Of a stretch of 64,000 bases of DNA, positions 31,236 to 63,126 are shown one piece after another (within the stretch, counting starts at the first letter, position 1; every line of letters begins with the position of its first letter). The position numbers were made by a program, and so were the translations under genes. This stretch comes from Huiozyma naganishii CBS 8797 (lineage: Eukaryota; Ascomycota; Saccharomycetes; Saccharomycetales; Saccharomycetaceae): the NCBI RefSeq assembly GCF_000348985.1, contig NC_035923.1, positions 62,001 to 126,000 of the forward strand. The letters run 5' to 3'. The notes under the pieces were generated by a model. It was not told where the DNA came from. It did no database searches and worked only from the letters and a program-made list of their open reading frames with translations.

Positions 31236-32363
31236 ATGTCCTACACTGCCCCATCTGACCCGGTGAACAAGAAACCTGTCAAAGTTGCGCAACTATGCGA
31301 TCTGTGCCACTGCCGGAAGGCTGTGCTGAAGAGGCCCAAGAACTTGCAGAAACTGTGCAAGGAATGTTTCTTCGATGTGTTTGAGACGGAGATCCACAAC
31401 ACTATTGTCGATAACAAACTGTTTCACAGGGGGGAGAAGATAGCCGTCGGGGCTTCCGGTGGTAAAGATTCGACTGTTCTGGCGCACATGATGAAATTCT
31501 TGAACGACAAGTACGACTACGGCATACAAATATACTTGCTGAGCATCGACGAGGGGATTGTCGGGTACCGTGACGACTCGCTTGCTACTGTACAGCGGAA
31601 CCAGAAGCAGTACGGTTTGCCCCTCGAGATCTTCTCCTTCAAGGACCTGTACGGGTGGACAATGGACGAGATAGTGTCCGTCGCAGGGATTCGAAACAGT
31701 TGCACGTACTGTGGTGTACTGCGGCGACAGTCGCTAGACCGTGGAGCACAGAAGCTGGGGATCCAACATGTGGTCACGGGCCACAACGCAGACGACATGG
31801 CCGAGACCGTGCTGATGAACATCCTGCGTGGGGACGTCGCTCGGCTGGAGAAGTCGACCTCGATTCTGACTAGCAGCAAGGGCTCGCCGATCAAGCGATC
31901 CAAGCCGTTCAAGTACTGCTACCAGAAGGAGATCGTGCTGTACGCACACTACAGGAAGCTGGACTACTTTTCGACGGAGTGCACATATGCGCCGGAGGCC
32001 TTCCGGGGCACCGCAAGAGAGTTGATGAAGAACCTCGAGGTCGTCCGCCCAAGCTGCATCATTGATATCATCCACAGCGGGGAAAACCTGTTCCTGAAAC
32101 CCGCTGCTGGTGGTCGCCGCCAGGGCCGCCGCCGCGGCCCTGGCACAACCAGTGCAAACACCACCTCTACAACTACTAGTACGGGCCCTGTCGACGGCAG
32201 CCGTTGCGAGCGATGCAATTACCTGTCGCGCAACCGGATCTGCAAAGCGTGCATGCTGCTGGAGGACCTGGACAAGAACCGCGCGGCCGTCACAATTGAG
32301 ACAGACACGTCCCACGACGGTGCCGCCAAGACACTCCGGTCCCTCGAGCGCCTGGCCTTCTAG
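31236..32363 (+). CDS. NCS6: tRNA wobble-uridine thiolation enzyme Ncs6
   Basis: 375 residues (S. cerevisiae 359). Ncs6 with Ncs2 transfers sulphur from Urm1 thiocarboxylate to U34 of Lys, Glu and Gln tRNAs. The ATG at 31236 gives [20 protein letters not shown], a slightly longer N-terminus than yeast. Motifs in order: zinc CxxC pair CDLCHCRK and [16 protein letters not shown]-loop [44 protein letters not shown]-terminal zinc pair [18 protein letters not shown] Gly/Arg/Thr linker (about 300-325) is expanded. A 10-codon upstream ORF (ATG 31160, stop 31192) lies in the 130-bp gap after VAM7. Confidence 0.97.
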
Positions 32364-55098: not shown

Positions 55099-58654
<3,556 letters not shown>

Positions 58655-58725
58655 TGCGCAAGCCCGGAATCGAACCGGGGGCCCAACGATGGCAACGTTG
58701 GATTTTACCACTAAACCACTTGCGC
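58655..58725 (-). tRNA. tG(GCC): tRNA-Gly (anticodon GCC)
   Basis: 71-nt tRNA on the minus strand. The acceptor stem GCGCAAG pairs with CTTGCGC, and the discriminator is A. The A box is TGGTTTAGTGG and the B box is GGTTCGATTCC. The anticodon arm CCAACGTTGCCATCGTTGG places GCC in the loop. There is no intron. The sequence is almost the same as S. cerevisiae tRNA-Gly(GCC). A T-run terminator lies just beyond on the minus strand. Confidence 0.97.
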
Positions 58726-59001
58726 TTACAATTTTTAAAAAAAAATTACGGGGCCCTTACAAGACTAGTCACAAAACACAGCTTACAGTCACGAGATACA
58801 ATTCTCTTACAAGATACGCAGCCCTCTCATACCAGCTATGGTCAATTGTGTTTGTGGCGCAAGCCACATATAATTGGACATTGTTATACTAGCGTCAAGT
58901 GCCACACTAACAAGACAAGTAAGACACAAAGCTTCATCAAGCGAACGGACAAACCCAAGCAAACGAGGTCTGACCCGACATCACCAATCAATATTACTGG
59001 T

Positions 59002-59282
59002 CGCTGACGGGATTCATCATCATACTACGATAGGACTTATATGAAAACTGTATCGGCTTCTCTAAACAGAACTATGTAGTGTACACAATACTATCTAGAG
59101 ATATCTTCCAATATATTTTTCCAGTGAAAAATACTGTTGTGACAATTCTCCATTTTCACTGGAAAAATATATTGGAAGATATCTCTAGATAGTATTGTGT
59201 ACACTACATAGTTCTGTTTAGAGAAGCCGATACAGTTTTTCATATAAGTCCTATCGTAGTATGATGATGAATCCCGTCAGCG
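59002..59282. repeat. Near-perfect 281-bp palindrome (129/130-bp arms, 22-bp spacer)
   Basis: The left arm 59002-59130 and right arm 59153-59282 are reverse complements with a single difference: one extra A in the right arm copy. The spacer is 59131-59152. The outer ends read CGCTGACGGG and CCCGTCAGCG. It lies about 280-560 bp upstream of the tRNA-Gly 5' end, the zone where Ty1-like elements usually insert. I find no protein in the arms. Confidence 0.95.
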
Positions 59283-59287
59283 GCCAA

Positions 59288-59631
59288 TGTTGAGATTCTG
59301 TTGGAGAGCGGGAAAGAAATGCTAAGTTAAGGTAAGTAAAAGCGCATAATTTTGACAGTGATCCAACCAGCTGAAGACATCTTACAAAAGTAATTAATTT
59401 AATTGTCCCTACTTGAGGTTAGATTTCCAACCCGGATGGTGATGAATTTACCCAAATTAAACATCTAGGTAAACGCTTGAGTGTCTACAAGCCGGTTTTT
59501 GGATGTGGCCATCCACATGTCTGTAGTGTTTTCCTCACATGTCGCGTTTATAATATATTCACAATACTTCATTTTGCATAATAACAAGATTTGAGTTCAT
59601 AATCAGAGAAGACCCACAATTTATCCTCACA
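59288..59631 (+). mobile_element. Solo LTR-like remnant
   Basis: About 344 bp beginning TGTTGAG and ending CAATTTATCCTCACA, that is TG...CA bounded and close to the length of Ty1-type LTRs. The end resembles the CAACAATTATCTCAACA block near the end of S. cerevisiae delta elements. The 3' third is collinear with the SPT16-CHC1 relic at 40995-41126. No 5-bp target duplication is visible (GCCAA before, CTAAG after), so the boundaries are uncertain. Confidence 0.5.
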
Positions 59632-60152
59632 CTAAGCATCGTGCTGGATATAGAAAATGAATATGATAAGGGTGATAAGATATCATCATAGGCATAAACA
59701 GGACACACACTTGATAAAAGACACAAATGTTAACAAGACAAATAATGATGCCACAAGTGCGGAAGTATCCACCACAGTGAGAAAGTGAAAAGTCACACCA
59801 TTGACTCTGAGCAAATTCTCACGTATATAAAGCCTAACTACATTGAATGAATTGATCCTTCTATCTGTGACAATATAGAAGAGATCATCGAACCATATAC
59901 TTATATATTAAGTATATACCAGAAGTCATACCTGAACTAAAACATCTCTTTACTCTACTACAATGAATAGCCACGGCAAACAAGACCCTATTCAACACAT
60001 CGAAAGTTTTCTTGATAACTTCATCATTTCAAACTTTAGATTTACTATTTTGTGACATTTTCAAACTTTTGAGAAAGAACCTCACACAAATTTAGAATAA
60101 ACATGATATAAGGGATAAAGTTGTGTTAAATTCTAGGAATCCTTCTGTGGAA

Positions 60153-60202
60153 ATATCTGATGTATTAGTGACGGATACGTCACTCTACGAAGCATCAGAT
60201 AT
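60153..60202. repeat. Nested dyad symmetry
   Basis: The outer arms ATATCTGATG (60153-60162) and CATCAGATAT (60193-60202) enclose the inner arms AGTGACG (60167-60173) and CGTCACT (60178-60184) around GATA. It might be part of a decayed LTR or a binding site; no protein is known to me for it. Confidence 0.7.
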
Positions 60203-61840
60203 GCCTATTGGATTATAACAACCCAAAGGTCCCAACCGGCTGCTAATGCAAGGACCAGTATGATCCCTGCAGCCGTTACTTACAAGCTCAATTCTATTAA
60301 AAGGTACATAAAGTGTTCTGTAAAAGTACAAGAAGATTATCTCGACGACAATCTTTTATATAAAAAATTTTCTTATAGAACAGTCCGTAGGAGATGATCA
60401 TATTCCGATTCTACATCTCAACAAGTTGTGATTCAATAATCTGTGCAGGACAGTCTTATATTCTTATTGTAACAATATATACTGGTATGCTTGCTATTTT
60501 TGTTGCAGCTACCTATTTTGTGCTCACCGTCGGGATGTATGACTTTTAGGGAAGGTCTAGAAAAATGCCCATATGAATACCTTACGGCTTACATCCTTTT
60601 ATACTAATTGATATCCGCATGGCTCAAAGCTCCTCTCACCATGTCAAAGTTAAAATATTTGACAATATTTTATTTTGTATAGCAGTTGGAATTTAATTGA
60701 TTACAAAAATGTATATACAAGTTACCTTCATACTAAAAGTACTCGGATTCTACGGAAAAGAAATAACGTATAGCCTATTCATTGGTGACAATGATGGACT
60801 ACTTTACCATAGCCACATAAAAAAAGTTTACTGGGCCTATATGCTTTCTAAACGTCAAGCGAAAATTATGAAACTTTACTATATGACAGTCATGGGGACG
60901 TGACGTTGATGCTACCAATTGGTGCTTAATCCAGTTCTATGTAAATTCAAGCGTATGGGTATTCTAATTTAGAAGTATACACAATCGTGTGAAGTATATT
61001 GAACAACGGAAAGTGTTCTGAGGTTTTTTGAGAGCGTTTACAGGTCACAGAAAGTTGAACTAACCAAGAAACTTCTAAAATACCGAATAATAAGAATGAT
61101 ATTCACAAACAGCGCTCAGGTTTTAAAGACAATATCTAGAACCAAAAAGAGAGAAAGGATGGGGGGTAGTCGCAGTTGTCCTACATTAGAGTAGTAAACT
61201 GCTTGTTGTCCGTAGCGAACTGGAACTTGTCTTTTTTTCGCATGATCGTCTAAATCGAGTATCGAACTCTGTAGCACAGCAGTAACCAACCCGACTACCC
61301 CACTAACACATTGATCTGTTGGAAATAGAGATACGAACATGCACCCCGTGTGATGCAGAAGTTTCTATGTCTCTACGACGTTTCGTTACGTGGAATAGAT
61401 GCTACAATTGGTGTTTATGACACGTCAACAGTATCCACGCGTCTGTACGCAGTCATCTACGGAATGCGAAATGTGGATAAAAATAAGACGAGATAGTATT
61501 GGAATTTGTCTCCAATAAACAAATGACAAAACTATAACGCATCGTGAACTTGTGTGATATTTCTTCCAGAATGAATCATATAAATAGCCACGATATAGAC
61601 CGTCGTCTCGAAGTAATTCTCAACACAGATTATTTCCAATCTGCTTATTTTTTATATATATTTTCCTTACATCTGTGAGGGCAAGAAACCGTTTATACAA
61701 GGTTTATAGAATAATTTATCTAATACTAAGATATGTCTTGGCAAAGAGGAACAACTAACAACACGTTGAGAAGCTTCGAGAACTTCGTTCATGATCACCC
61801 TTGAAGATAGAGTTTTTTCTCAGCCAAAAGGTGTGTCATG

Positions 61841-62106: not shown

Positions 62107-63126
62107 ATGTCAACTACATCTGCCCCCGCCTACAGCAAGCTGAAAATGTTGTATGAACTGTACTACGGGTTTTTTCCGAACAAGCCCACTTTCACTCCTG
62201 AGGATTACCCAGATCTAGCGGGGAAAACTGCAGTTGTTACAGGCTGCAACACTGGTATTGGCCTTCACGTTGTTGAATACTTGTATAAGAAAAATTGTAA
62301 CGTGATAGGGGTAGTCAGAACAGAATCAAAGGGTATTGCTGCGCGTGACAAAATTGTGAAGGAATGTCCTGAATCTAAGGGGTCGATCAGTATCGTTGGT
62401 GGCTGTGACTTTTGTGACTTATCATTGATCAAGGACACAGGGGTTAAAGTGAAGGAAATATTGGGCGATAAGCCATTGAGCATAATAATACATAATGCAG
62501 GGTTAATGGCCTCCAGTAATCAACTGACTTCTAAACAAGGGTATGAGTTGATGTTTCAGACCAATTGTTTAGGTCCTCAACTGTTACAACATTTTCTGGA
62601 TTCACTCTTCTTGAAGAAGGATTCCGATCTAAAAAGAATTGTCTGGGTTAGTTCCGGTGCTCATTTACTTGGGTTTAAAGATTACGGCATTAATTGGGAA
62701 GACCCCTGCTTTGAAAAGGTATCCAAAAATCAAAGAGCACATGCAGCAGTCTTATACGGACAGTCTAAGACTGGTAATATCTATCAGGCCAATGCCTGGG
62801 CTTCGAAACACAAAGAAATTGTCGAGGAGATTGGATGTGTCTCTGTCTCATGCTATCCAGGTAATCTAAAAACTGATCTGCAAAGGGATTGGAGCAGAAT
62901 TGGAAGATGGATCGGGAACCGCATATTTTGGGACGGAAATTACGGAGCGTATTCAGAACTTTATGGTGCGCTATATCCGGGCCTTTCCACAAAAGACCAA
63001 GGTGTCTATATTGTTCCATTTGGAGAAATTCACGATCCTAGAGAAGATGTCAAAGCTGGATTATCCAATGGGACTGATTTAAAGTTCTGGGATATTGTCG
63101 AAGAAAAGATATCTCCTTTCTTCTGA
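62107..63126 (+). CDS. Short-chain dehydrogenase/reductase, retinol-dehydrogenase/bli-4-like
   Basis: 339 residues, Rossmann-fold SDR. The coenzyme motif is TGCNTGIG (about residues 46-53), NAG appears in HNAGLM, the catalytic Ser is in WVSSGAH, and YGQSKTGN carries the Tyr-x3-Lys pair. The N-terminus YSKLKMLYELYYGFFPNKPT then FTPEDYPDLAGKTAVVTG resembles fungal bli-4/light-induced alcohol dehydrogenase relatives. QGYELMFQTNCLGPQLLQHF also fits that group. The substrate is unknown; an aldehyde or ketone reduction is likely. It is not part of the S. cerevisiae chromosome VII gene order. Two PDREs upstream suggest induction with drug-resistance genes. The ATG at 62107 directly follows the leader microsatellite region. 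Confidence 0.9.
   Translation: MSTTSAPAYSKLKMLYELYYGFFPNKPTFTPEDYPDLAGKTAVVTGCNTGIGLHVVEYLYKKNCNVIGVVRTESKGIAARDKIVKECPESKGSISIVGGCDFCDLSLIKDTGVKVKEILGDKPLSIIIHNAGLMASSNQLTSKQGYELMFQTNCLGPQLLQHFLDSLFLKKDSDLKRIVWVSSGAHLLGFKDYGINWEDPCFEKVSKNQRAHAAVLYGQSKTGNIYQANAWASKHKEIVEEIGCVSVSCYPGNLKTDLQRDWSRIGRWIGNRIFWDGNYGAYSELYGALYPGLSTKDQGVYIVPFGEIHDPREDVKAGLSNGTDLKFWDIVEEKISPFF

What the first reader, a model, noticed from the sequence alone, without database searches (positions are those of the whole stretch)
59002..59282. 281-bp near-perfect palindrome upstream of a tRNA gene
Two arms of 129 and 130 bp differ by one inserted A and are separated by 22 bp. Such long palindromes are unstable in yeast, so this one is young, maintained by gene conversion, or an assembly artefact. 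If transcribed it would make a long hairpin RNA, of interest in yeasts that keep Dicer/Argonaute. Its place a few hundred bp upstream of a tRNA-Gly fits the Ty-insertion zone, so it may derive from two inverted element fragments.
Basis: partly seen in the sequence, partly recalled or inferred. Interest (0 to 1): 0.8.

Follow-up and report, generated by a model that had tools for sequence, protein, structure and literature searches.

The report
Retrotransposon end folded into a palindrome
In a relative of baker's yeast that carries genes for RNA interference, the end of an old jumping gene appears to have been copied back on itself, leaving a mirror-image stretch that could make a hairpin RNA if it is transcribed; the DNA accident is of a known type and any silencing role is untested.

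Summary
The palindrome is real and as described: arms 59002-59130 and 59153-59282, 22-base spacer, one extra A; across one mismatch they reach 58998 and 59286. The window lies in Huiozyma (Kazachstania) naganishii, by inference. The arms are the U5-side end of a 227-bp LTR found at 29 places in the genome, this one included. In 13 of 28 LTR loci a tRNA gene was found nearby, each time with the LTR upstream of it. None of the 28 other loci is palindromic.

The hinge falls on a 7-bp inverted repeat (GTGAAAA, 22 nt, TTTTCAC) that ordinary copies also carry. This points to a DNA strand end snapping back and copying itself (foldback inversion). Two inverted insertions plus a microhomology deletion remain a rival. 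An assembly error could not be tested.

The genome encodes Argonaute, a Dcr1-type Dicer and a Dcr1-like protein with catalytic positions replaced. A 133-bp hairpin RNA could feed RNAi, as palindromic loci do in N. castellii, but I have no evidence of transcription. New member of a known kind; moderate interest.

The parts
58998..59130 (.). left arm of the palindrome (core 59002-59130)
59131..59152 (.). 22-base spacer (loop)
59153..59286 (.). right arm (core 59153-59282); inverted copy of the left arm with one extra A; ends 3-7 bases short of the LTR terminus
58995..59159 (-). LTR fragment in original order: positions 63-227 of a 227-bp LTR in sense orientation (the first 62 bp of the sense LTR are missing)
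   Evidence: orientation from the primer-site-like sequence in L041
59124..59130 (.). GTGAAAA, left half of the 7-bp hinge
59153..59159 (.). TTTTCAC, right half of the 7-bp hinge; ordinary copies continue here as LTR
58655..58725 (-). tRNA-Gly (GCC); the palindrome lies upstream of it
59642..59997 (.). solo LTR of another family, flanked by CATCG on both sides; context only, not part of the palindrome

Best explanation
A solo LTR of a Ty-type retrotransposon, sitting upstream of a tRNA-Gly gene, was rearranged by a foldback inversion. A strand whose 3' end lay at TTTTCAC snapped back onto GTGAAAA, 22 bases earlier in the same LTR, primed DNA synthesis, copied about 125 bases back almost to the LTR terminus, and was then released and joined to flanking DNA; the other 62 bp of the LTR were lost. 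Shown: LTR identity, hinge native to the family, near-identical arms, truncated right end. Inferred: order of steps, polymerase and joining, and that the strand was chromosomal rather than cDNA. Today it is most likely a passive relic. Because the genome encodes Dcr1 and Ago1, a transcript through both arms would form a 133-bp hairpin that could be cut into siRNAs against the LTR family; I give about 0.15 that this happens.
For: LTR family: 227 bp, 29 places, perfect 5-bp target duplications in 6 of 26 copies printed, primer-site-like TGGTAGCGC directly after one copy. Hinge: of 28 sibling rows (25 distinct places) 12 have GTGAAAA/TTTTCAC, 7 have CTGAAAA/TTTTCAG, 2 the latter with an extra A, 7 have mismatches; only 5 of 11,281 position pairs in the LTR (spacer 3-60) show 7 bp or more. 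Arms share the variants 28C, 33T, 95C and 118C, a set that none of 25 siblings has complete. Measured yeast foldbacks have comparable repeat length, loop and joining (PMC11724301 passages; PMC5677150 passages).
Against: Three siblings (L002, L003, L008) carry three of the four shared variants, so that evidence is modest, and some separate copies are as alike as the arms (L012/L015 differ by 1, L004/L005 by 2). Most foldbacks in PMC11724301 were under 14 bp; about 125 bp is at the long end of its 2 to about 150 bp range. That the right arm stops 3-7 bases from the LTR terminus is not predicted by a chromosomal foldback.
Confidence: 0.6

Rival explanations
1. Two separate insertions of the same LTR family in opposite orientation, followed by a deletion between them at a 7-bp microhomology (TTTTCAC).
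For: Gives the same junction; both outer ends are U5 ends; the site is an insertion zone; separate copies can be nearly identical (L012/L015, L004/L005).
Against: Needs two insertions and a deletion; the right terminus lacks or has changed its last 3-7 bases; both arms share a set of variants not complete in any of 25 siblings.
Confidence: 0.18
2. The foldback happened in retrotransposon cDNA (minus strand self-priming) and the product was inserted, by integrase or at a break.
For: The strand that would fold back is the minus-strand cDNA; both outer ends lie at or near the U5 terminus; self-priming of minus-strand strong-stop DNA is described for HIV-1 (PMC4668388 passages); inversions within extrachromosomal single strands were tested in yeast (PMC11724301 passages).
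Against: No perfect target duplication: AATAT on the left, AATGT on the right and only if the arm is read as ending in CC. Transcription start of the LTR unknown. A hairpin cDNA must still be turned into a duplex.
Confidence: 0.15
3. Assembly or library artefact (inverted chimera).
For: No reads were available to check; inverted chimeras exist (recalled).
Against: Different DNA on the two sides within a 1.41-Mb contig; the right arm has its own extra A, absent from the left arm and 25 siblings.
Confidence: 0.07

Closest known systems
Foldback inversions at breaks in S. cerevisiae (PMC11724301, passages)
   Same: Inverted microhomology with a loop (there 10 bp imperfect and 41 nt; here 7 bp and 22 nt), copied length within 2 to about 150 bp, 0-5 bp microhomology at the captured end (here up to 3 bp).
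   Different: There measured in the laboratory and mostly under 14 bp; here a natural event inferred from sequence, about 125 bp, within an LTR.
Palindromic siRNA loci of Naumovozyma castellii (PMC7528652, passages)
   Same: Inverted repeat in a yeast with Ago1 and Dcr1 genes that would give a hairpin transcript.
   Different: There 22-23-nt RNAs were sequenced (74.1% of siRNA reads from palindromic loci in the control strain); here no RNA data.
Mu killer of maize (PMC3440606, start of abstract in a search listing only)
   Same: An inverted piece of a transposon that could make a hairpin matching the rest of its family.
   Different: Mu killer silences MuDR and a hairpin of about 4 kb is proposed; here 133 bp of LTR and no activity data.
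Palindrome expansion by template switching in rad27 yeast (PMC5677150, passages)
   Same: A nascent strand folds back at a short inverted repeat and copies itself, sometimes with loss of neighbouring bases.
   Different: Seen in mutants over laboratory passages, not in an LTR of another species.

Membership tests
Ty-type LTR (the arms) | dispersed repeat with fixed ends and 5-bp target duplications | tested here: met
   29 places; 6 of 26 copies printed have perfect 5-bp duplications
Ty-type LTR (the arms) | tRNA primer site directly after the LTR | tested here: met
   TGGTAGCGC after L041, in one copy only; its identity as initiator-tRNA primer site is recalled
Ty-type LTR (the arms) | paired LTRs round a coding region of the same family | tested here: inconclusive
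   the 1,500 bp after L041 occur once; an RVT_2 match lies 3.6 kb further on; no second LTR of the family seen beside it in the list
Foldback inversion | inverted microhomology with spacer at the hinge, present before the event | tested here: met
   7 bp, 22 nt; exact in 12 of 28 sibling rows and changed on both sides in 7
Foldback inversion | short or no microhomology at the far junction | tested here: inconclusive
   arm ends in GCG or CCA next to flank; the ancestral flank is unknown
Foldback inversion | arms derived from one copy | tested here: inconclusive
   shared variants favour it, but separate copies can be as alike
Palindromic siRNA locus of a budding yeast | Argonaute and Dcr1 encoded by the host | tested here: met
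Palindromic siRNA locus of a budding yeast | transcript through both arms and 22-23-nt small RNAs | not testable with these tools
   no RNA data at hand

The most novel reading that the evidence does not exclude
The palindrome is a naturally arisen trans-silencer: a transcript through both arms forms a 133-bp LTR hairpin, Dcr1 cuts it, and Ago1 loaded with the siRNAs represses transcripts carrying this LTR. It would be a yeast counterpart of Mu killer, born in one step by foldback at a hairpin that the LTR itself carries. 20 of 25 sibling sequences share at least one perfect 23-mer with the arm and all 25 share one with at most one mismatch.
Probability: 0.15. Interest if true: 0.7.

Novelty: new member of a known kind. 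Interest (0 to 1): 0.4.

Why it matters
If the hairpin is expressed, it would show how a yeast with RNAi genes can gain a ready-made silencing locus against a transposon family through a single DNA accident, and it gives a small locus to test that. Even if silent, it is a natural foldback inversion whose hinge can be read to the base, because unrearranged siblings exist in the same genome.

Tried and rejected
Bacterial-type promoter and terminator scan: not informative for a yeast. Rfam over 58400-60600: only the tRNA. Plasmid collection: no match to the LTR. That near-identity of the arms alone proves a single origin: dropped, because some separate copies are as alike. That the 163-bp LTR of the Ty on C7 is the parent: dropped, because it is a different sequence and a copy of the palindrome's family lies inside that Ty. 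Literature: 10 searches. For RNAi in this species, one search gave one review (PMC5499181, passages), which lists the genome and whose RNAi passages do not name the species; one search gave none; I saw 15 of 290 listed. PMC4668388, PMC7528652, PMC11724301 and PMC5677150 were seen in passages; PMC7531349 in passages but not used; PMC3440606 only as the start of its abstract in a listing. The library lacks most subscription papers, so I claim no absence from print. Recalled, from no call: the initiator-tRNA primer motif and which RNase III positions are catalytic.

Full report
OBSERVATION. Across one mismatch they extend to 58998 and 59286. As RNA the stretch folds into one long hairpin of -236.5 kcal/mol; 100 shuffles average -62.3 (sd 4.6). 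The other inverted repeats listed in the window with arms at most 1 kb apart are 24-28 nt and 75-83% complementary. tRNA-Gly (GCC) is at 58655-58725, minus strand.

ORGANISM. The assembly has 10,845,821 bases in 13 contigs. The protein read from L070 on contig C3 (1,310,278 bases) is identical to one listed as KNAG_0C00210 of Huiozyma naganishii CBS 8797 on a contig of the same length. A review lists Kazachstania naganishii CBS 8797 at 10.8 Mb with 13 chromosomes (PMC5499181, passages). The window's COQ6 is nearest, among named proteins, to Monosporozyma, Arxiozyma, Maudiozyma and Kazachstania. The species name is an inference from these.

THE ARMS ARE LTR SEQUENCE. The arm gives 31 matches in the genome. 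The full repeat is 227 bp. A search with it gives 32 matches, which I merge into 29 places, the palindrome and one 70-bp fragment included; 21 matches cover at least 223 of 227 bases (the tool calls such counts lower bounds). Of 26 copies printed with flanks, 6 have perfect 5-bp target duplications (L031, L033, L035, L037, L039, L040); the other 20 do not, being truncated, decayed, in duplicated blocks or next to element sequence. In L041 the repeat is followed at once by TGGTAGCGC, which I recall as the start of the initiator-tRNA primer site; so the sense LTR reads TGTTGG...CCAGTA and in the window lies on the minus strand. The 1,500 bp after it occur once in the genome. I found no complete element of this family, but I searched only with this stretch and with RVT_2. 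One copy is inserted within a different Ty on C7.

THE LANDING ZONE. Of 28 loci holding LTR copies (L031-L058, the palindrome included; two overlap), 13 have a tRNA gene found by ARAGORN within about 1.5 kb, and in all 13 the LTR lies upstream of it, about 80-720 bp away. The other 15 have none found; a bacterial-mode scan may miss tRNA genes with introns. None of 10 other loci of this genome (L060, L061, L063, L064, L066, L068-L072) has one; these controls are few and not random. A solo LTR of another family sits at 59642-59997 with CATCG on both sides.

HOW THE PALINDROME AROSE. The window copy follows the LTR from 58995 to 59159 and then turns back. The turning point is a 7-bp inverted repeat of the ordinary LTR: GTGAAAA, 22 nt, TTTTCAC. 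Of 28 sibling rows (three are second records of the same place), 12 have it exactly, 7 have CTGAAAA/TTTTCAG, changed on both sides, 2 have that form with an extra A, and 7 have one or more mismatches. The changed form comes mostly from near-identical subtelomeric copies, so it may be about one event. Only 5 of 11,281 position pairs in the LTR with spacer 3-60 show 7 bp or more. The arms differ by the extra A, which none of 25 siblings has, and by one base near the outer edge (three duplicate rows were dropped before that count). Both arms carry 28C, 33T, 95C and 118C; none of 25 siblings has all four, but L002, L003 and L008 have the first three, so this is modest evidence for one origin. The right arm ends 3 or 7 bases before the LTR terminus and 62 bp of the LTR are missing. 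None of the 28 other loci shows a second, inverted copy. The left flank 58726-58994 finds only itself, although one search shows weak likeness of its last 53 bases to stretches in L016 (79%) and L020 (77%). The first 220 bp on the right also find only themselves.

COMPARISON WITH MEASURED EVENTS. In yeast, breaks repaired by foldback used 10-bp imperfect repeats with a 41-nt loop, copied from 2 to about 150 bp, mostly under 14, with 0-5 bp microhomology at the captured end; two-piece inverted insertions from elsewhere had a median of 6 bp (2-11) between the halves (PMC11724301, passages). Palindrome expansion by a folded nascent strand is described in rad27 mutants (PMC5677150, passages). The values here (7 bp, 22 nt, 123-127 bp copied, at most 3 bp at the far end) lie within those ranges, the copied length near the upper end.

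RIVALS. Two inverted insertions with a 7-bp microhomology deletion give the same junction, and identity of the arms does not exclude this: L012/L015 differ by 1 in 133 and L004/L005 by 2. It needs more events and a change at the right terminus. Foldback in cDNA, as in self-priming of HIV-1 strong-stop DNA (PMC4668388, passages), would explain why both outer ends lie near the U5 terminus, but no perfect target duplication is present (AATAT left; AATGT right only if the arm is read as ending in CC) and the transcription start is unknown. An assembly artefact is unlikely for the reasons given, but reads were not available.

COULD IT ACT? The genome encodes an Argonaute (open frame of 1,245 aa; 837 residues read, best match KpAGO), a Dcr1-type protein (661 aa, best match K. 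polysporus Dcr1 for the 381 residues submitted) and an Rnt1-like protein. In N. castellii 74.1% of 22-23-nt siRNA reads came from palindromic loci in the control strain (PMC7528652, passages). Of 25 sibling LTR sequences, 20 share a perfect 23-mer with the arm and all 25 one with at most one mismatch. Against a role: I have no evidence of a transcript. The nearest long reading frames run away from the locus (55099-58149 minus, 62107-63126 plus), so read-through from a gene is not obvious. The LTR pieces point outward, so a promoter inside an arm would not yield both arms. No complete target element was found. I therefore call it a relic with potential, not a shown siRNA locus.

VERDICT. Real, and best explained by a known kind of DNA accident inside an LTR. 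The more exciting part, silencing, is testable and untested.

Noticed in passing
L070 / P0121 (G000:C3, about 31978-32250 and around): A second Dcr1-like protein (815 aa; Dicers_N and RNase III domains) in which catalytic positions, named from recall, are replaced: LEFLGDS reads LQFVGDS and the VEAYIGA glutamate is lysine. Four unnamed metagenomic relatives were found (36-37% identity); the two that I aligned share the lysine. A possible conserved Dicer pseudo-enzyme.
   Followed up: partly
L027/L029/L050 (G000:C13:352095-352520): Another rearranged copy of the LTR: positions 1-79, about 190 bp with a further LTR piece in the same orientation, then 70-227.
   Followed up: partly
L073 (G000:C7:187501-197400): A Ty with LTR-like direct repeats of 163 bp (97.5% alike) whose coding region carries a nested copy of the palindrome's LTR family.
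   Followed up: partly
L021-L024, L028 (ends of contigs C2, C6, C9, C12): Near-identical LTR copies in shared flanks close to contig ends, so part of a subtelomeric duplicated block; their hinge repeat is changed on both sides.
   Followed up: partly
window 59642-59997: Solo LTR of a second, more numerous family (48 matches, with only the best candidates scored), flanked by CATCG on both sides.
   Followed up: partly
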